Shown piece after piece: positions 2,740-46,710 of a stretch of 46,710 bases of DNA. Numbering within the stretch: the stretch's first letter is position 1; the number at the start of each line of letters is the position of its first letter. Under the pieces are notes generated by a model. The model was not told the DNA's origin. It worked only from the letters and a program-made list of their open reading frames with translations, and did not search any database. This DNA comes from a virus. The stretch covers positions 1 to 46,710 of the IMG/VR virus record IMGVR_UViG_3300035698_035363. One strand, 5' to 3'. The position numbers were made by a program, and so were the translations under genes.

Positions 2740-4671
2740 TCAAGTTTTGAAAACCTTCAAATTCTTAAAAAAAGCTTCTATTTTTCCTAAGATTAATGTT
2801 TTAGGGGCAGGGGGAAAACTAGACAAAAATGAATTTCTGTACCTGGCTTTATAAAGTCTTTTGTCTAAGATAGCTATTACTCCAGTATCGGTAGTACTTC
2901 TTACTAATCTACCCATTCCTTGTTTAAGCCCCATTACAGTTTCCGGGATAGTATATTTAATCCATGATTTTCCTTTTCCATACTTCTCATCAATTAGCCT
3001 CATTTTAGCTTTTACTAATAAATTTCCTTGTTGTGGAAATGGTAAGTTTTGAATTACTACCAATGAAACTTTGTCACCCTTAATATCTACCCCTTCCCAA
3101 AAGCTTTTAGTAGCAAATAAAATTCCATTATCACTATCTAAGAAGTCTTGCAAAAGTTGCTTTTTAGATATGCCAAATTGTTGAATAAAAGTTGGGTAAG
3201 ATATGTTGCAGTTATTATAGTAATCTTTCATTGCTTTATAACTGGTAAATAAGACTAAAGCCCTACCCTCTGAATAGTCAATTAGTTTTTCTAACTCCTC
3301 ATATTGACCGTACTGGCAATCATCACTAGATAAATAAATTCTTACATTTTTATCATATCTAAATGGAGAACCAGCCATTAATTCTAAGCACTCACTCTCT
3401 AACCCTATCTGTTGTTTAAAATAGTCAAAACTTTTAGCAACAGCTAGAGTTGCTGAGGTACTAATTACAGTTTTATCTTTAAATAATATTTCCCCCAAAT
3501 ATTTTCCGATTTCAACTGGGCTATGTTTTATGGTTACTACTAAATTCTTTCCTCTTGAATCATAAGCCTCTATCCACCGGACTTGTTTATTATCAGGTAA
3601 TTTTAAGACATTAAATTCTTCAATGAGTTTTTCAACTTCTTGTGATATTGATTTAATTTTATTAATTACTTCTGGGGAGGTAGCTACACTTACTGCGGTT
3701 AATACTTTTCTTTCTATCAATTCAAGTTCATGAATTATAAAATCAAAATCAGTCCCTATGGCTTTAAACTCCCTTTGCTCATAATAGATCCCTTGTTTTT
3801 CTGGAAGATATCCTTGTTTAATAATTTTTTTAAACTCCCCCTCTAATTTTATCCTTGCTTTACTTGAATAGAATTTTCTTACTATTTTAGAATTAGTAAT
3901 ATGTCTAAGGGTAAATAAGTTTATTGATCCACTAAAAGCTAGGGTAGCATAACTTTCAAAAGCGTGTGCCTCATCAATTATTATATTTTTTATACCCTTA
4001 GGAAGTAGTCCAGCTTGTCCTTCACTTATATTTTTAATTACTAGATCTAGTGCTAATAAAGTGTGATTAACCAAGACTATATCTGAAGCTTTGGCTTTTC
4101 TTCTAGCCTTATTAGCAAAACACATCTCATCATATTTTGTTCCTTTTTGGTGTTTCACAAATTGGTTACAACAAATTAACTCTTTTACTTTTGGGCTTAA
4201 TTCTAGGGGTATTTCCTCAACCTCCCCAGAATTAGTTGACTCCGTCCAGGCAGTTATTTTTTTAATATCTTGATTAGACAAATAATTACTTAAATTGTCC
4301 TCAATTAAATTAATATCAAAACATTCTTGGCAAAAATAATTTGACTTACCTTTGAGAATCGCCCACTGAATAGGTCTTAAATTTTCTTTATCGAAAATGT
4401 CTCTTAAAAATGGAAGGTCTTTATTATTTAATTGATCCTGCAAAGCCTTATTAGAAGTAGAAACAATTGCCTTTTTATTATGAAGTAGTACTGGCAAGAG
4501 GTAAGAGAAACTTTTTCCCACCCCAGTTGAGCCTTCTATGACTGCGTGTTTTTTATTAAGCAAGGCATTTTCTACATAAGTAGCCATTTGAAGTTGCGAG
4601 GGTCTGAGTTCATAATCTTTTAAATGTTTATTTAAAACTCCCCCAGCTTTTAAAAAATCAGTTATTTGCAT
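2740..4671 (-). CDS. DinG/XPD-type superfamily 2 DNA helicase
   Basis: A 643-aa helicase. Walker A is GSTGVGKSF (about residue 45), the DEAH box is IIDEAHAF (about 235), and the C-terminal motif VI is GMGRLVRSTTDTG. Four cysteines between motifs I and II (FCQEC, CCNQ, EMCFAN) match the spacing of the 4Fe-4S cluster of DinG/XPD helicases. The family unwinds 5'-to-3' and resolves damaged or structured DNA; a replication or recombination role in the phage is likely. Length is near that of bacterial DinG without an exonuclease domain. Its start overlaps the epimerase gene end (4658) by 14 nt, so the two are probably translated from one mRNA. Confidence 0.9.
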   Translation of the reverse strand: MQITDFLKAGGVLNKHLKDYELRPSQLQMATYVENALLNKKHAVIEGSTGVGKSFSYLLPVLLHNKKAIVSTSNKALQDQLNNKDLPFLRDIFDKENLRPIQWAILKGKSNYFCQECFDINLIEDNLSNYLSNQDIKKITAWTESTNSGEVEEIPLELSPKVKELICCNQFVKHQKGTKYDEMCFANKARRKAKASDIVLVNHTLLALDLVIKNISEGQAGLLPKGIKNIIIDEAHAFESYATLAFSGSINLFTLRHITNSKIVRKFYSSKARIKLEGEFKKIIKQGYLPEKQGIYYEQREFKAIGTDFDFIIHELELIERKVLTAVSVATSPEVINKIKSISQEVEKLIEEFNVLKLPDNKQVRWIEAYDSRGKNLVVTIKHSPVEIGKYLGEILFKDKTVISTSATLAVAKSFDYFKQQIGLESECLELMAGSPFRYDKNVRIYLSSDDCQYGQYEELEKLIDYSEGRALVLFTSYKAMKDYYNNCNISYPTFIQQFGISKKQLLQDFLDSDNGILFATKSFWEGVDIKGDKVSLVVIQNLPFPQQGNLLVKAKMRLIDEKYGKGKSWIKYTIPETVMGLKQGMGRLVRSTTDTGVIAILDKRLYKARYRNSFLSSFPPAPKTLILGKIEAFFKNLKVFKT

Positions 4672-5566
4672 AATATTTTGCTGTTATTTGTAATCCTTTA
4701 GCCAATTTTGTTATTTTAAAATTTTTATTTATGAGAAATGGTGAGATCACACTATCCCTAATTTCCCCGTTTCTTTCTTCACAGTGAATGACTTCATTAT
4801 CTTTAACATTCAAAACTGTTTTTAACGTGTTTAAAAGAGTTAAAACATCTGTTCTAATTCCAGTGCTTACATGAAAAACTCCTTGGTAATCACTCAATGC
4901 TAAAATATTTGCTTTAACCACATCCTGCACAAAAACAAAATCTCTAGTTTGTTTTCCATCACCATAAATTGTAATAGGTTCCCCCTTTAGTAATTTGTCT
5001 GCAAAAATAGCGACTACGCCCCCTTCGCCATCAAATCGCTGTCTTGAGCCATAAACATTAGAATATCTTAAAATTGTTACTTGGTATTCCCCATTGTTAA
5101 AAACATGGGTTAAAAATTTCTCAGAAGCCCATTTATTTTTTCCATAGGGTGAGATTGGTTCTGGTGTTGTAAATACTGTAGGTGGTGTTGAGCAATTAGG
5201 AAATAAAGCCCCTGCTGTAGAAGCAAAGATAAATTTTTTTACTTTATAAATAAAACACAGACAAGCTAAATAGTTAGTAGCTATAGTATTTATTTCAAAA
5301 TCTAACTTTGGATTTTCTATAGACTTAGTAACACTAATTTGAGCTGCGTGATGATTTACTACATCTGGCTTAAATTGTTTAAATATCCCTTCTAAAAAAG
5401 AAAAATCAGTAATGCTTCCGAATCTAAAAATGGCTTTTTTGTTTATATTCTTAAGTTTCCCATTGGACAAATCATCAATAATAACTACCTTATGCCCTGC
5501 TTTAATATAAGCATCTGCAATATGTGAGGCTATAAATCCCGCCCCACCTGTTAGTAATATTGTCAT
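4658..5566 (-). CDS. NAD-dependent sugar-nucleotide epimerase/dehydratase
   Basis: A 302-aa extended short-chain dehydrogenase. The N-terminal Rossmann motif is TGGAGFIAS (residues 6-14), with an acidic IIDDLSNG after beta-2 as in UDP-glucose 4-epimerase-like enzymes. The catalytic YGKNK (Tyr-x-x-x-Lys) lies near residue 140, preceded by ASTAGALF. YGSRQRFDGEGG resembles the substrate loop of GalE/WbpP-type enzymes. It would interconvert a UDP- or dTDP-sugar in the cytosol. The phage also encodes a large glycosyltransferase (40096-42990), so it may supply or alter a donor sugar for glycan addition; that link is inference. It overlaps both neighbours by a few bases (5563-5566 is ATGA-type). Confidence 0.88.
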   Translation of the reverse strand: MTILLTGGAGFIASHIADAYIKAGHKVVIIDDLSNGKLKNINKKAIFRFGSITDFSFLEGIFKQFKPDVVNHHAAQISVTKSIENPKLDFEINTIATNYLACLCFIYKVKKFIFASTAGALFPNCSTPPTVFTTPEPISPYGKNKWASEKFLTHVFNNGEYQVTILRYSNVYGSRQRFDGEGGVVAIFADKLLKGEPITIYGDGKQTRDFVFVQDVVKANILALSDYQGVFHVSTGIRTDVLTLLNTLKTVLNVKDNEVIHCEERNGEIRDSVISPFLINKNFKITKLAKGLQITAKYYANN

Positions 5567-10083: not shown

Positions 10084-10896
10084 TTACATAACTATTGTTC
10101 TTTCAACAATCTTCCCTGTGTCTGGATTTTTAACTTGAACAAAAGCTCTTTCTTTAGATACTTTCAGTTCTGTATTTTGATCTAATCCAGTTTCTAAAAA
10201 CGCTTTTATTTTATCCTCTGGAGCTGAACAAAGTGGTAAAAAATTATTATAATTTTTCATCCAGTCAGGACAAGTGCAGGGGGGTATCTTGGCAGTTTCC
10301 CAATAATTAATCATCTCAGCCATTTCATCTTTTATTTGTCTTTCTCTAGTAGGGGTGAGTAAAACTTCTGGTGAAAAAATAATCTGTTGAGAATACTTTA
10401 GGTCTTTATTAATATAAATTAATAATCCCTTTTTAATTTTTTCTGCTTCTAAATCAGCTTGATTTTTTAAAATAGCATAAGTTAAAAGTTGTGACCTATT
10501 TTGTGGGCTAATTTCTTGTTTTTTAATTTTATATGAATTACACGATTTAACATCAGCAATAATTCTTTCATCATTATCACCCTTTAAAATAGCATCTAGT
10601 CTACCCTTAAAATGCTCAGTTTCCACTGTTTCCTCCACACTTGCTAACCTATTATTAGCTTCTAGTGCTTCATAGGCAAATTCATGGATCAAGTCGCCCA
10701 ACTTAAATATCCAAGCCACATGATCTTCTAGCTGAGCTTTTATTCCATGCCTTTTCAACCAACGCATCCTTTTACAACCACCCATATCAGAGACATAGTA
10801 TTTCAATTTCTTTTTTATTTTGCTAGGGGAAGGTTCATACTCTCTACTCTTGATAATGTATTCTAAAATCTCGTCACCAATGGGATGATTCTTCAT
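10084..10896 (-). CDS. Cas4/RecB-like PD-(D/E)XK nuclease with Fe-S type cysteines
   Basis: A 270-aa protein. The nuclease core shows HFKGRLDAIL (acidic residue of motif II) and IADVKSC (the D-x-K motif), followed by QSRSQ-like SQLLTYAIL (motif QhxxY). One Cys near residue 40 (MGGCKRMRWL) and a C-terminal cluster (PCTCPDW...PLC) match the split 4-Cys iron-sulphur site of Cas4/AddB nucleases. Expected activity is single-strand DNA exonuclease or end processing for recombination. It precedes the SSB operon. Start at 10896 has AAGGAAT upstream. There are no Cas1/Cas2 or CRISPR repeats nearby, so it is a phage recombination nuclease rather than an adaptation protein. Confidence 0.82.
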   Translation of the reverse strand: MKNHPIGDEILEYIIKSREYEPSPSKIKKKLKYYVSDMGGCKRMRWLKRHGIKAQLEDHVAWIFKLGDLIHEFAYEALEANNRLASVEETVETEHFKGRLDAILKGDNDERIIADVKSCNSYKIKKQEISPQNRSQLLTYAILKNQADLEAEKIKKGLLIYINKDLKYSQQIIFSPEVLLTPTRERQIKDEMAEMINYWETAKIPPCTCPDWMKNYNNFLPLCSAPEDKIKAFLETGLDQNTELKVSKERAFVQVKNPDTGKIVERTIVM

Positions 10897-40095: not shown

Positions 40096-42990
40096 TTACT
40101 CCTTCCAAGTTTTCATAAAATGATGCTTTGTAATTGTGTTCTTTGTAATTTTAACAGTTTCCTTCTCATGATTGTATGGGAAAAAATAGTCTGGGGTGTA
40201 GATCTTAAATCCCTCTGGTTCCCACTTATCATACCCCTTAGTTAGAATTTCCATTGATGACTCAAAACACTTATCATCATCACCTCTGAAGTTAATCTCC
40301 ACTTCATTCATCCATCTTTTGACAAACTTATGCCCTGGTTCTGAAGCTACTACAGCACTGCCAATCCACCCATTCTCTTCTCTACCTGCAAACATTTTGT
40401 TTTTTAGTAAATCATCAAAGTTCTTGCCCTCTAAAACTTCAACGTCTGCATCAAGATAGATACCACCCTCAGTGTAGAGGTAGTGCATCCTCAAATAGTC
40501 AGAGGCTTTGCACCATTTTTGCTTGTCATGTTTAGAAGCCAAGCACTCTTTCATATACTTCGAGTCTTTAAAGCAATTATCTAGTGTGATTAGTTTGTGT
40601 TCATATCCTTCTATCTTCTGAGACTCAATACACTTCTTAACCAACTCAGGCATTTCATCGCCTAACCAAATAGTGAAAATACGTTTTGGAATTATATCTG
40701 GTACAACAAAATTCTCTTTAAATTCAAACCCTAGTTCCTTGGCTCTTTTTTTATACAATGCCCTGTCGTGGTCTGCCCTATCTTTGCGATATGCTAACTG
40801 GTAAACATCGTCTAATGGTGTTTTGTAACCGTCTTGAATGGGGTGGTCATGGTAAACTTTAGCTTCCTCAGCCCAAACATATTTACCTATCTTTTTACAA
40901 CGCTCGGTCAGTTCATTATCTGCTCCAGTATGAAAATACCCAGTGTGAAAGAACTCGTTTCCCAAGCCAGGTAGAAGTTTCTTGGACACTAAAAAATGGG
41001 TAGCGAACTCACCGTTCCAATACCCATCGTTCAGCCCAACCATACCGTCTAAATCTGGAAAGTTCTTAATCATCCTGTAAACCGCTAACTGTAAGAAGTC
41101 TTTTTTTGGAACACAATCATTTCCCAGATACATGACGAGATCCCCATGACTCTCTTCTACGCCTTGTTTTAATAGCTTAGGTACTCCAGTGTTATTAGGA
41201 GGAAATTGGTCATACTTGACTATGATCTCATAATTATCATATCCAGCGTTTTCTTTAATTAGTTTCAAGAGGTTATTCAACTTACCTGATCGACCAAGAG
41301 TAGGAATAATGATGCTAACGAATGGAGCTTGTACGTCTTGATGCCAGATAGAATAACCACCAACTTTAACTGCCCCCATTGACTCATCAACAGCTTCTTT
41401 AACACCCATCCAAATTGTGGAAATATAATCATGACCAGACATGATAACTCTGGCTTTGTCTTTCCACATGGCAATATCTTCTAAAACTTCTTCTTTAGTG
41501 TGACCTGCGTCAATAAAGACCATGTCATACTTCTTACCCTCAAGTTTCTTGGCAGCCTCTTTACTAGACATCTTCATCACCTCTAGGTTCTTGAAGTGAC
41601 CTACATTCTTCATAAATTCACCGTAAATATCTTTTTGTTTAGCTAAATCATGAGTCCAATCTTTTAAGTCTTTAGATCCTGCAAACGTGTCTACCGCCGT
41701 TACCTTGCCTTTACACCCAGATAGTAAAGCGTGGGTGCTTCGACCTTGCCAACTTCCTACCTCAAGTATAGAGTCCATTTTCTTAGCTGTTTCATACAAC
41801 CAGGTCAACTCAGAGAATTGCATCCAACCCTCTATTCCCTGATCTGGATACTCGAAATAGAACTTAGTGTCTCTTAGGTATTCAGGTTTAAACGGACAAT
41901 GATCTAACGCTTTAGTTAAATGTTTTTTAGCCCCCCCAATATCTCCCACCCATCCCTTAGCCCAATAAAGAATCTCATGAGGTACGTTAGTATAATCAGC
42001 CATGTCAGTAGCATAAAATCCACTCCAGGGAACTTCCATAGCTGCGGAAGCGTAACAAGCTGCTGCTTGAGGGTTATTATTATGTTGATAGAATCTAGCT
42101 AATTTAATAAATGCTTCTCTTCTCTTATTATCAATGTAAAGTGATTTGTTGTACCACTCAACTTGTTTCTCTGGTTGATTAATCTTCCCATAAGCATCTC
42201 CTAAAAAAATCATTGATTGAGCTTTCTCTGCCGGCCACCGATTCATCTCAACATGACGTTTAAATTCTTTAATGGCACTTTTTGGTCTGTCACTCCAAAG
42301 TAGCTCTCTAGCAAAATAGTGAGAATTTCTGTCTTTATTTGGATTGTTAAAACAATCAACTGCTAATCCCACTAGATATGAATGTCTACCTGTTGAATGA
42401 TTCTGGAAATGTTCTAACTTAAATACATCCTCATCGAGAAAAGTTCTTTTAGCGCTTCCTTGCAAACATTCATGGACAAGACCAACCCATTTCATTTTTC
42501 TTCGATCATAGAACTTAGACTGCACAAACTTGATTGATTCTCTTCTGTGCTGATCATGGGCAAAAACAAAATTATATTCAAACTGTTCACTACCATTTTT
42601 AATTAACTTTTGAATTTTCTCAGTATCAAACTTGGTGAAAGCCTCATCAGCATCAGCAAAAGACACCATGTCATTCTTTGCAAGAGATGCAGCATGATTT
42701 CTGGCTGAGGCAAAGTCAAAATATTTATCTTTTTCATTGACAATTAAAGCCTCATCATCAACAATAAATTGTTTATTAATCTTGTCTGCTAATTCTTTAT
42801 CAATTATGTGGAGATATTTATCACCTACCTCAGTAACACTACAACCTCTTTCTTTGGCAATCTTGACTGTATTGTCAGTAGATCCTGTGTCTAAAATGAC
42901 TATGTCATCAATGTTTTTAATGGAATCTAGTAACTTAGGAAGAGTCTCTTGTTCGTTCTTGGTGATGACTACAACAGAGATTTTATTCAT
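40096..42990 (-). CDS. Multidomain glycosyltransferase (GT2 + TPR + methyltransferase-like + GT2 + GT32)
   Basis: About 964 aa from the ATG at 42990 (the frame runs on to an ATG at 43014). Domain 1 (about 1-220) is GT2, WaaE-like: SVVVITKNEQETLPKLL, ILDTGSTDNT, FADADEAF. A TPR-type helical segment follows (about 230-340). Domain 3 (about 390-530) is a Rossmann methyltransferase-like fold: ILEVGSWQGRSTHAL, VTAVDTFAG, FIDAGHTKEEV. Domain 4 (about 550-740) is another GT2: FVSIIIPTLGRSGKL, YLGNDCVP. Domain 5 (about 770-960) is GT32 (Och1/capsule type): FTIWLGDEMP, KASDYLRMHYLYTEGGIYLDADVEV with its DxD. It lies between virion genes, so a virion or wall glycan may be the acceptor (inference). Confidence 0.85.
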   Translation of the reverse strand: MNKISVVVITKNEQETLPKLLDSIKNIDDIVILDTGSTDNTVKIAKERGCSVTEVGDKYLHIIDKELADKINKQFIVDDEALIVNEKDKYFDFASARNHAASLAKNDMVSFADADEAFTKFDTEKIQKLIKNGSEQFEYNFVFAHDQHRRESIKFVQSKFYDRRKMKWVGLVHECLQGSAKRTFLDEDVFKLEHFQNHSTGRHSYLVGLAVDCFNNPNKDRNSHYFARELLWSDRPKSAIKEFKRHVEMNRWPAEKAQSMIFLGDAYGKINQPEKQVEWYNKSLYIDNKRREAFIKLARFYQHNNNPQAAACYASAAMEVPWSGFYATDMADYTNVPHEILYWAKGWVGDIGGAKKHLTKALDHCPFKPEYLRDTKFYFEYPDQGIEGWMQFSELTWLYETAKKMDSILEVGSWQGRSTHALLSGCKGKVTAVDTFAGSKDLKDWTHDLAKQKDIYGEFMKNVGHFKNLEVMKMSSKEAAKKLEGKKYDMVFIDAGHTKEEVLEDIAMWKDKARVIMSGHDYISTIWMGVKEAVDESMGAVKVGGYSIWHQDVQAPFVSIIIPTLGRSGKLNNLLKLIKENAGYDNYEIIVKYDQFPPNNTGVPKLLKQGVEESHGDLVMYLGNDCVPKKDFLQLAVYRMIKNFPDLDGMVGLNDGYWNGEFATHFLVSKKLLPGLGNEFFHTGYFHTGADNELTERCKKIGKYVWAEEAKVYHDHPIQDGYKTPLDDVYQLAYRKDRADHDRALYKKRAKELGFEFKENFVVPDIIPKRIFTIWLGDEMPELVKKCIESQKIEGYEHKLITLDNCFKDSKYMKECLASKHDKQKWCKASDYLRMHYLYTEGGIYLDADVEVLEGKNFDDLLKNKMFAGREENGWIGSAVVASEPGHKFVKRWMNEVEINFRGDDDKCFESSMEILTKGYDKWEPEGFKIYTPDYFFPYNHEKETVKITKNTITKHHFMKTWKE

Positions 42991-43033: not shown

Positions 43034-43921
43034 TTAATTAGCAGTCACACCGGCAACTGCCTTAATACTAGCCTCTGCTACACCTGCAAGTTGTTTAACA
43101 TTTGACCAATCTATTGTTGCCATTTGCTTAATATCCCCCGTTGATACATCAATTAATGAGTATCTTCTAATTTGTGGAGTCAAAAAATTGGCGTATGGAT
43201 CACTATATAGTTGTTTTATTTCAACAGGTGAAAGAGCACGATTATAAATTCTAACGTCATCAATAACTCCATTTAATTTATCATTACCATCATCGTTTGC
43301 AAAGAAAAGGGAGTCGGTTGAATCAAAAATACTGCCACTTATTGTGGGCTGATCAATATTATCATTAGAGCCATTAATATATAAATCCATAGTGGTACCA
43401 CTAACGACTCCGACTATATGATACAAAGTATTCGCTAATAGAGCATCACCTAAATATTCAGCTTCATACTGAGTTAGGGTAGTGTTTACCCAAAAGAATG
43501 ATGGTTTGTTTGCAGTGCTAACAGTAATCTTATATGATTGATATGGACTTGAGCCGTGAGCTTTGTAAACAATTGTTGCTCTGTTTCCTGTAGCACTGGG
43601 AAGCGAATTAAATTTTATCCAAGTAGAAATAGTCATATCTCCAGTAGGTTCTAAAATAGCACTATCTGTAATTGTTATATCATCATCGGATCCATCAAAA
43701 ACTAATCCTCCCCCATGCACTGTGCCAACCCAATCTGTTGCAGGGTCCATATTATTTAAAACTCCATCATTCTTATTTCCTGAGATATCTCTTACAATGC
43801 CTCCAGCTCCTTCATTAAATAACCAACAAGCAACTAATCCTTTTGAAAGAGGATGAAGTGGATTAATCCTTATTCCTGGTTTGGGCTTAATAATGTAGCC
43901 TTTTTGACTAGAATAACTCAT
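43034..43921 (-). CDS. LamG/concanavalin-like virion protein
   Basis: A 295-aa protein. GLVACWLFNEGAGGIVRDIS, GSDDDITITD, MTISTWIKFN, and IDDVRIYNRALSPVEI are the diagnostic strands of the LamG-like (concanavalin A) jelly roll, which binds carbohydrate. The C-terminal region is short and Ala/Val-rich. Placed with the collagen-like fibre, it is likely a sugar-binding part of the virion that helps attach to the host envelope. Confidence 0.85.
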   Translation of the reverse strand: MSYSSQKGYIIKPKPGIRINPLHPLSKGLVACWLFNEGAGGIVRDISGNKNDGVLNNMDPATDWVGTVHGGGLVFDGSDDDITITDSAILEPTGDMTISTWIKFNSLPSATGNRATIVYKAHGSSPYQSYKITVSTANKPSFFWVNTTLTQYEAEYLGDALLANTLYHIVGVVSGTTMDLYINGSNDNIDQPTISGSIFDSTDSLFFANDDGNDKLNGVIDDVRIYNRALSPVEIKQLYSDPYANFLTPQIRRYSLIDVSTGDIKQMATIDWSNVKQLAGVAEASIKAVAGVTAN

Positions 43922-43922
43922 A

Positions 43923-44528
43923 CTATGCTATTGAATCACCAGTTATCATTAATGCTTTAACATGAACATTGGCACCAGTAGCTCCCTCATGTTGGAAAAT
44001 AACTCTAACTCTACCAACCGCAGTTAAATCTAGCTGAGCAGTAAACTTTTCTGCATCACTCCAGAAGTCAGAAGCTGCCGCTGTTTGCTCTGTTGTCAAA
44101 CCATCTAATAAATCAATACTTGTATTAGAGACTATTTGTTCGATTTTTGCCCATTCACCATTACCTATAGTAGTGTTGATGATATAAACCTCATTTGTAG
44201 CCACAAATCCAGTGGTACTAGAGACAACACATACTTTTTCACCTATTGGTTCAGTTGCAGTAAATGCCTCTGTCACAGCAGTTACTATACCTGGAGTAAA
44301 TTGAGCAACTGTTGTCCAATCTTCATCCCCACTTGAAGAAGGTGATATTTGAATATAAAAACTCCCAGGGTTTGTGTTGGCCGTATTCTCAACAGGTGCA
44401 TGAAAACAAACAATCGTTGCCGCTAATTTAGTAGTGACGTCTTGATCTGCACCTACCAATGAACCTGGGTGAGTTATTGCGGTATGAGCTAGTACTGCTA
44501 TACCTTGGGTTTTACTTATGTCTGCCAT
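43923..44528 (-). CDS. Virion-associated beta protein
   Basis: A 201-aa beta-rich protein with a Shine-Dalgarno (AAAGGAGTG) before the ATG. Segments VAQFTPGIVTAVTEAFTATEP, VGRVRVIFQHEG and VHVKALMI suggest a beta sandwich such as carbohydrate-binding or Ig-like modules. One nt separates it from the LamG gene. Likely structural. Confidence 0.65.
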   Translation of the reverse strand: MADISKTQGIAVLAHTAITHPGSLVGADQDVTTKLAATIVCFHAPVENTANTNPGSFYIQISPSSSGDEDWTTVAQFTPGIVTAVTEAFTATEPIGEKVCVVSSTTGFVATNEVYIINTTIGNGEWAKIEQIVSNTSIDLLDGLTTEQTAAASDFWSDAEKFTAQLDLTAVGRVRVIFQHEGATGANVHVKALMITGDSIA

Positions 44529-44529
44529 A

Positions 44530-44883
44530 TCACTCCTTTGTATATCCGTAATACTTTAATTCTATTTTAATCCTATTTTTATAATCAGCAATTAACTGAT
44601 CTGACATTTCATCCAACGAGTTATTGGTTGTTCCACCTGATTCTGCTAAAAAAGACGTTCTAATCTCAAGCATATCTCCAGTTGCAATAAGATCCGCTTC
44701 TTCTTGAGTAATATTACCTGGATTAGTACCTATTGTTAAAGATGTGCCTCCATTTTTACCACTTTCAATCAAACATTGTTTCCAACTCTTACCAGCGGAA
44801 TTATTTCCAATAGGAACAACAATATGTAAAGCTACTGCATAATTTCCGTTGGTGTCAGCCTCTAAGATGTGTATCTTACTCAT
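44530..44883 (-). CDS. Hypothetical virion-region protein
   Basis: A 117-aa protein with a strong AAAAGGAGATAAT before its ATG. NSAGKSWKQCLIESGKNGGTSL and GNITQEEADLIATGDMLEIRTSFL segments are familiar from uncharacterised phage structural-region proteins. It lies between the collagen-like fibre and a beta protein. Confidence 0.6.
   Translation of the reverse strand: MSKIHILEADTNGNYAVALHIVVPIGNNSAGKSWKQCLIESGKNGGTSLTIGTNPGNITQEEADLIATGDMLEIRTSFLAESGGTTNNSLDEMSDQLIADYKNRIKIELKYYGYTKE

Positions 44884-44901: not shown

Positions 44902-46710
<1,809 letters not shown>

What the first reader, a model, noticed from the sequence alone, without database searches (positions are those of the whole stretch)
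40096..42990. A phage protein of five fused glycan-modifying domains inside the virion cluster
Motifs show two GT2 domains, a TPR segment, a methyltransferase-like domain and a GT32 domain in one polypeptide of about 964 residues, between structural genes. GT2, GT32 and Rossmann methyltransferase motifs are family knowledge; the fusion is seen directly. With the sugar epimerase at 4658-5566 the phage may assemble a glycan by itself, on its fibre or capsid or on host wall polymer.
Basis: partly seen in the sequence, partly recalled or inferred. Interest (0 to 1): 0.85.

Follow-up and report, generated by a model that had tools for sequence, protein, structure and literature searches.

The report
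Phage enzyme for sugar-coating collagen-like fibres
A bacterial virus carries one long protein that joins a protein-glycosylating enzyme to further sugar-adding and sugar-methylating modules, and in related viruses this enzyme almost always travels with a collagen-like fibre whose repeats are packed with threonine, so the virus probably builds sugars onto its own fibre.

Summary
One 964-residue frame (40096-42990, minus strand) carries GT2, TPR, methyltransferase, GT2 and GT32 modules with catalytic motifs intact. The likely function lies next door: four genes upstream (44902-46710, minus) is a collagen-like fibre with Thr at 99 of 114 y positions of its G-x-y repeats. The N-terminal GT2-TPR core folds like the peptide glycosyltransferases SunS/ThuS. 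Of 30 unique records with the core, 28 carry a Thr-rich collagen gene, usually within 5 kb and on the same strand (35 of 36 genes); of 42 records found through the window's capsid, none does. In reverse, 26 of 50 phage records sampled for GYT collagen carry the core, 12 of 50 sampled for G[PA]T collagen carry a relative of it, and 0 of 50 sampled for GP[KEQ] collagen do. Modules behind the core are permuted between phages. Best reading: a phage-encoded, single-chain glycan assembly line that O-glycosylates Thr of the phage's own fibre. It works like C. difficile SgtA with its collagen BclA3, but is fused, modular and fibre-directed. Glycosylation itself is unproven; the proposed link to the epimerase at 4658-5566 is unsupported.

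The parts
42391..42990 (-). Core, GT-A (GT2) domain, aa 1-200; proposed initiating protein glycosyltransferase; D113-x-D115-E116 motif
   Evidence: Pfam GT2; AF2 pLDDT 92; SunS/ThuS fold match; D113, D115, E116 invariant in 26 sequences
41845..42384 (-). Core, TPR domain, aa 203-382; proposed binding site for the acceptor chain
   Evidence: AF2 helices 203-378; TPR profile matches; VIA-align matches to TPR domains
41326..41844 (-). Methyltransferase module, aa 383-555; proposed sugar O-methyltransferase
   Evidence: Methyltransf_24 1.9e-14; fold match MeT1 Z 20.6, also SpnH, NovP, MycF; E410, G412, G416, D434 conserved
40726..41325 (-). Second GT2 module, aa 556-755; proposed chain-extending glycosyltransferase
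   Evidence: Confident GT-A model with GT-A fold matches; module profile found in 39 distinct rows, N624-D625 conserved
40099..40725 (-). GT32 module, aa 756-964; proposed further glycosyltransferase
   Evidence: Pfam Gly_transf_sug 2e-9 and Caps_synth 4.4e-10; D847 and D849 conserved in 12 of 12; model low confidence
44902..46710 (-). Collagen-like fibre, 5' end beyond the window; 99 of 114 y positions Thr; proposed acceptor
   Evidence: Pfam Collagen 2.7e-36; PHROG tail fibre families; repeat count
43034..43921 (-). LamG (concanavalin A-like lectin fold) virion protein directly upstream of the enzyme gene
   Evidence: PF13385 8e-27; phrog_8510 virion structural protein
43923..44883 (-). Two short genes (44530-44883, 43923-44528) between fibre and LamG gene, spaced as in one operon
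   Evidence: ORFs and short gaps; no family match

Best explanation
It is a phage-encoded, single-polypeptide glycan assembly line for the phage's own collagen-like fibre. Proposed steps: (1) the N-terminal GT-A/TPR core, a SunS/SgtA-type cytoplasmic peptide glycosyltransferase, binds the fibre chain and puts a first sugar on Thr in the y position of G-x-T (mainly G-Y-T) repeats; (2) the second GT2 and the GT32 module extend that sugar; (3) the methyltransferase O-methylates the glycan. The glycosylated Thr would stabilise the triple-helical shaft in place of hydroxyproline and coat the fibre. Shown here: domains, motifs, core fold, gene linkage, two-way association with Thr-rich collagen, permutation of modules. 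Inferred: acceptor, sugar identity, order of steps and effect on the fibre.
For: Core fold closest to peptide glycosyltransferases SunS/ThuS (Z 23.1, rmsd 2.2 over 260 aa). Fibre in the same gene run has 99/114 Thr in y. 26 of 30 unique core loci have Thr-rich collagen in the fetched stretch, 2 more elsewhere in the record, 35 of 36 genes on the same strand; 0 of 42 capsid-fetched records. Sampling by collagen repeat: core in 34/118 GYT, 13/120 G[PA]T, 2/120 GP[KEQ] stretches; 26/50, 12/50 and 0/50 whole records. Methyltransferase fold closest to sugar O-methyltransferases. Relatives beside Thr-rich collagen in phage DSL-LC01 and on Priestia plasmids. Precedent: SgtA adds O-GlcNAc to Thr of BclA3 collagen repeats in vitro (PMC7157674).
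Against: No biochemical evidence. Records are related by descent, so association statistics overstate independence. Not all relatives sit near annotated collagen (PaBG), and many GYT-collagen records lack the core, partly because they are fragments. In L004 and L011 collagen is not adjacent. The GT32 fold was not confirmed by modelling.
Confidence: 0.72

Rival explanations
1. The enzyme modifies host surface glycans (O-antigen, teichoic acid, capsule) during infection and blocks superinfection; its place among virion genes is incidental.
For: Phage glycosyltransferases are usually read this way (e.g. PMC7029224); the GT2 domain resembles wall teichoic acid enzymes TarP/TarS in fold.
Against: No membrane segment; the TPR-bearing core fits peptide glycosyltransferases best; linkage follows the Thr content of the collagen, which this view does not predict.
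Confidence: 0.12
2. The enzyme glycosylates another virion protein (LamG protein, capsid or tail protein), and collagen is linked only because all belong to one fibre module.
For: LamG protein lies directly upstream; mycobacteriophages glycosylate capsid and tail tube (cited within PMC12619734).
Against: Capsid relatives come without the core; Thr-poor collagens, also in fibre modules, lack the enzyme.
Confidence: 0.1
3. The enzyme glycosylates hypermodified phage DNA.
For: Phage glycosyltransferases can hypermodify DNA (cited within PMC12619734); a PHROG labels the methyltransferase region DNA methyltransferase.
Against: Methyltransferase fold closest to sugar O-methyltransferases; no base-modification gene among the profiled ORFs, although not all ORFs were profiled; gene not in the replication module.
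Confidence: 0.03

Closest known systems
SgtA with collagen-like BclA3 (Clostridioides difficile exosporium; PMC7157674)
   Same: GT-A domain followed by TPR, gene next to a Thr-rich collagen-like gene, about the size of the core (358 aa).
   Different: Stand-alone, cellular, spore coat; here fused to a methyltransferase and two further glycosyltransferases, in a phage, with mainly G-Y-T instead of G-P-T repeats. Sequence relation to SgtA was not tested.
SunS / ThuS peptide S-glycosyltransferases (7MSN, 7MSK, 7MSP)
   Same: Fold of GT-A plus helical repeat over 260-315 residues.
   Different: Act on small bacteriocin precursors at Cys; score far below the SunS family cut-off (24 against 350 bits); no such precursor seen.
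GT2-TPR glycosyltransferases beside collagen genes on Priestia plasmids (pBM500 and others)
   Same: About 25% identity over the whole core; adjacent collagen genes with 219 of 220 and 134 of 140 y positions Thr; neighbouring second glycosyltransferase, and methyltransferases on pBM500.
   Different: Separate genes, divergent orientation, cellular; x positions Val/Ala/Ile/Leu.
Mimivirus collagen glycosylation (L230 and relatives)
   Same: A virus encoding both a collagen and an enzyme that glycosylates it (PMC8968730, PMC9546862 as found).
   Different: There hydroxylysine is glycosylated by a lysyl hydroxylase/glycosyltransferase; here y is Thr and no hydroxylase domain is present.
Virion glycosylation of mycobacteriophages (Freeman et al. 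2023, cited within PMC12619734)
   Same: Phage-encoded glycosylation of its own virion proteins.
   Different: Reported targets are capsid and tail tube C-termini, not collagen; the paper itself was not held.

Membership tests
SgtA-type collagen O-glycosyltransferase | GT-A domain with DXD followed by a TPR domain | tested here: met
SgtA-type collagen O-glycosyltransferase | Gene linked to a collagen-like gene with Thr in the y position | tested here: met
   reverse test
SgtA-type collagen O-glycosyltransferase | Transfers a sugar to Thr of collagen repeats | not testable with these tools
   needs biochemistry
SgtA-type collagen O-glycosyltransferase | Sequence homology to SgtA itself | not tested
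   SgtA sequence was not fetched; only Priestia relatives compared
SunS family peptide S-glycosyltransferase (TIGR04195) | Score above the family's curated cut-off | tested here: not met
   24.2 bits against 350
SunS family peptide S-glycosyltransferase (TIGR04195) | Shared fold of GT-A plus helical repeat | tested here: met
   Z 23.1, rmsd 2.2, 260 aa
GT32 sugar-binding region (PF04488) | Score above Pfam cut-off and DXD motif | tested here: met
   38.5 bits against 23; D847, D849 conserved
GT32 sugar-binding region (PF04488) | GT-A type fold | tested here: inconclusive
   pLDDT mostly under 50 in this part
Methyltransf_24 (PF13578), sugar O-methyltransferase | Profile score above cut-off and SAM-binding motif | tested here: met
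   54.8 bits against 26.3; E410, G412, G416, D434
Methyltransf_24 (PF13578), sugar O-methyltransferase | Methylates a sugar hydroxyl | not testable with these tools
   only fold resemblance to MeT1, SpnH, MycF, NovP
Mimivirus L230-type collagen lysyl hydroxylase/glycosyltransferase | Acceptor Lys in the y position of the collagen | tested here: not met
   y residues are T 99, I 8, S 3 and four others of 114; no Lys

The most novel reading that the evidence does not exclude
Many environmental phages carry a self-contained modular assembly line on one polypeptide that initiates, extends and O-methylates a glycan along a Thr-rich collagen-like fibre. The sugar replaces hydroxyproline in stabilising the triple helix, and swapping of the C-terminal modules changes the glycan coat between phages, as a route to fibre durability, host recognition or escape from defence.
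Probability: 0.35. Interest if true: 0.82.

Novelty: new variant of a known kind. Interest (0 to 1): 0.66.

Why it matters
If true, tailed phages make glycosylated collagen by themselves, which would explain how G-Y-T repeats without hydroxyproline can form stable shafts. It would give a function to a set of phage glycosyltransferases now labelled beta-1,4-glycosyltransferase, O-antigen modifier or DNA modifier, and provide compact enzymes for making glycosylated collagen. The open question (are phage collagen fibres glycosylated, and by what?) becomes directly testable by mass spectrometry and co-expression.

Tried and rejected
Epimerase link: one viral scan with the epimerase found no relative, so co-occurrence could not be tested; treated as unsupported. 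DNA-methyltransferase label (phrog_2675): rejected for this domain because the fold is closest to sugar O-methyltransferases. Capsid as constant partner: capsid relatives come without the core. Promoter and terminator scan around the cluster: at chance level. PDB sequence searches: only weak hits for the GT32 part through the DXD region and none for the methyltransferase part. Literature searches for O-glycosylated phage collagen found none in the open-access library; subscription journals and preprints are not held, so this is not proof of absence. Core tree against the x residue (Tyr or not): 6 changes against 15.6 in shuffles, but near relatives and sampling by repeat motif inflate this; suggestive only.

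Full report
What is there. The minus-strand frame 40096-42990 encodes 964 residues from ATG (972 from an upstream TTG). Pfam finds GT2 (three stretches), a sub-threshold TPR, Methyltransf_24 and the GT32 DXD region. An AlphaFold2 model of the N-terminal core (390 aa) is confident (pLDDT 92): a GT-A domain, aa 1-200, followed by a helical repeat, aa 203-378. The model of the whole chain is confident for the core, a Rossmann methyltransferase (about 383-555) and a second GT-A domain (about 556-755), but not for the GT32 part. That part rests on Pfam scores and conserved motifs.

What the core is. The best solved matches over GT-A plus TPR are SunS and ThuS, glycosyltransferases of ribosomal peptides (Z 23.1, rmsd 2.2 over 260 aa). 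A profile of 26 phage cores also reaches GmaR and SunS. Across those 26 sequences D113, D115, E116, H173 and E174 among others are invariant. The score for the SunS family itself is far below its cut-off, so the core works like a peptide glycosyltransferase but is not filed as a SunS.

The neighbour. Four genes upstream on the same strand, with short gaps, lies a collagen-like fibre (44902-46710, cut by the window end; Pfam Collagen, PHROG tail fibre). Of 114 G-x-y triplets, 99 have Thr in y and 60 are G-Y-T. In between are two short genes and a LamG protein.

Association tests, from the enzyme. Scans of viral contigs with the protein and with the core alignment gave about 30 distinct related contigs. 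Only 2 loci came from 84,980 species genomes, both in contigs of metagenome-assembled genomes. Of 30 unique records with the core (the window and those 2 included), 26 carry Thr-rich collagen in the fetched stretch and two more elsewhere in the record; the last two are contigs of 24.5 and 8.9 kb. Enzyme and collagen share a strand in 35 of 36 cases, and the gap runs from an overlap to about 7 kb. Of 42 records fetched through the window's capsid, none has the repeat.

Association tests, from the collagen. I sampled viral DNA by collagen repeat alone. The core was found in 34 of 118 GYT stretches, 13 of 120 G[PA]T stretches and 2 of 120 GP[KEQ] stretches; both GP[KEQ] exceptions also hold collagen genes with about half Thr in y. 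Over whole records the counts are 26, 12 and 0 of 50. Any GT2 domain occurs in 31 of 50 GYT and 7 of 50 GP[KEQ] records. So the enzyme follows Thr-rich collagen, not collagen in general. The samples are related by descent, so the p-value (about 5e-10) overstates the strength.

A wider family. G[PA]T phages mostly carry shorter relatives (about 350-420 aa), several of them overlapping or touching the collagen gene. The named phage DSL-LC01 has such an enzyme about 3 kb from two collagen genes with mainly G-P-T repeats. On Priestia plasmids a relative of about 25% identity lies beside collagen genes with 219 of 220 and 134 of 140 y positions Thr. In the viral structure library the core also matches larger proteins of uncultured phages and of pithovirus bins. 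Not every relative is linked to annotated collagen: the one in phage PaBG is not.

Modularity. Profiles made from the window's and its relatives' modules show the core always at the N-terminus and variable modules behind it: core alone, core-GT2, core-MT-GT2, core-MT-GT2-GT32, core-MT-GT32-GT2, core-MT-GT32-GT32-GT2, core-GT2-MT and core-GT2-GT32 (Pfam). Some members carry other methyltransferase types (L018, L019, L028, L117). The methyltransferase of the window is closest in fold to MeT1 and also matches other sugar O-methyltransferases, SpnH, MycF and NovP (that these act on sugars is stated in the titles of SpnH and MycF and otherwise is my own knowledge). This is what one expects of a constant initiator with interchangeable extending and capping enzymes; that function is inference.

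Mechanism. The closest experimental precedent is SgtA of C. difficile: a GT-A plus TPR enzyme whose gene lies beside bclA3 and which adds beta-O-GlcNAc to Thr of collagen repeats in vitro; extending enzymes could not be identified there (PMC7157674). I infer that the phage core does the same to its fibre and that the fused modules supply the extending and methylating steps. Glycosylated Thr is reported to stabilise the triple helix of Riftia cuticle collagen (cited within PMC11766948 and PMC6953826), and prokaryotic collagens mostly lack hydroxyproline (PMC8968730); together these suggest why a Thr-rich fibre would need the enzyme. This last step is hypothesis.

Verdict. It is a new variant of a known kind (SgtA-like collagen glycosylation), novel in its fusion, its modular shuffling and its phage fibre target. 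I found no description of it in the open-access literature searched.

Noticed in passing
L003:2458-2949: An ORF with an HNH-endonuclease-like sequence interrupts the assembly line of a close relative: core-MT, GT32 and the two halves of the second GT2 are in separate frames around it.
   Followed up: partly
L012:7986-11380 and L013:1831-5881: Two core-bearing genes in tandem with different modules, which suggests duplication and divergence of the assembly line within one phage.
   Followed up: partly
L478 (OQ999401.1 95184-108221): In phage DSL-LC01 a stand-alone GT2-TPR relative overlaps a gene annotated tryptophan halogenase, near two Thr-rich collagen genes; an odd partner for a fibre module.
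   Followed up: no
L479 and L480 (Priestia plasmids): Plasmid collagen genes with almost pure G-x-T repeats (219 of 220) beside a GT2-TPR enzyme, a second glycosyltransferase and, on pBM500, methyltransferases: a cellular unfused counterpart.
   Followed up: partly
L007:6948-7976 and L027:6691-7566: A Thr-poor collagen-like gene (0 to 14% Thr in y) lies nearest the enzyme, with the Thr-rich one further upstream.
   Followed up: no
L034:1-3264 and L035:7950-9865: The core is split over two frames; real frameshift or sequencing error not decided.
   Followed up: no
window 40096-42990, PHROG matches: phrog_13126 (beta-1,4-glycosyltransferase) and phrog_2675 (DNA methyltransferase) are likely misleading labels for these domains.
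   Followed up: partly
window 10084-10896: A phage gene matching phrog_1706, labelled CRISPR/Cas system associated (E 5.7e-19).
   Followed up: no
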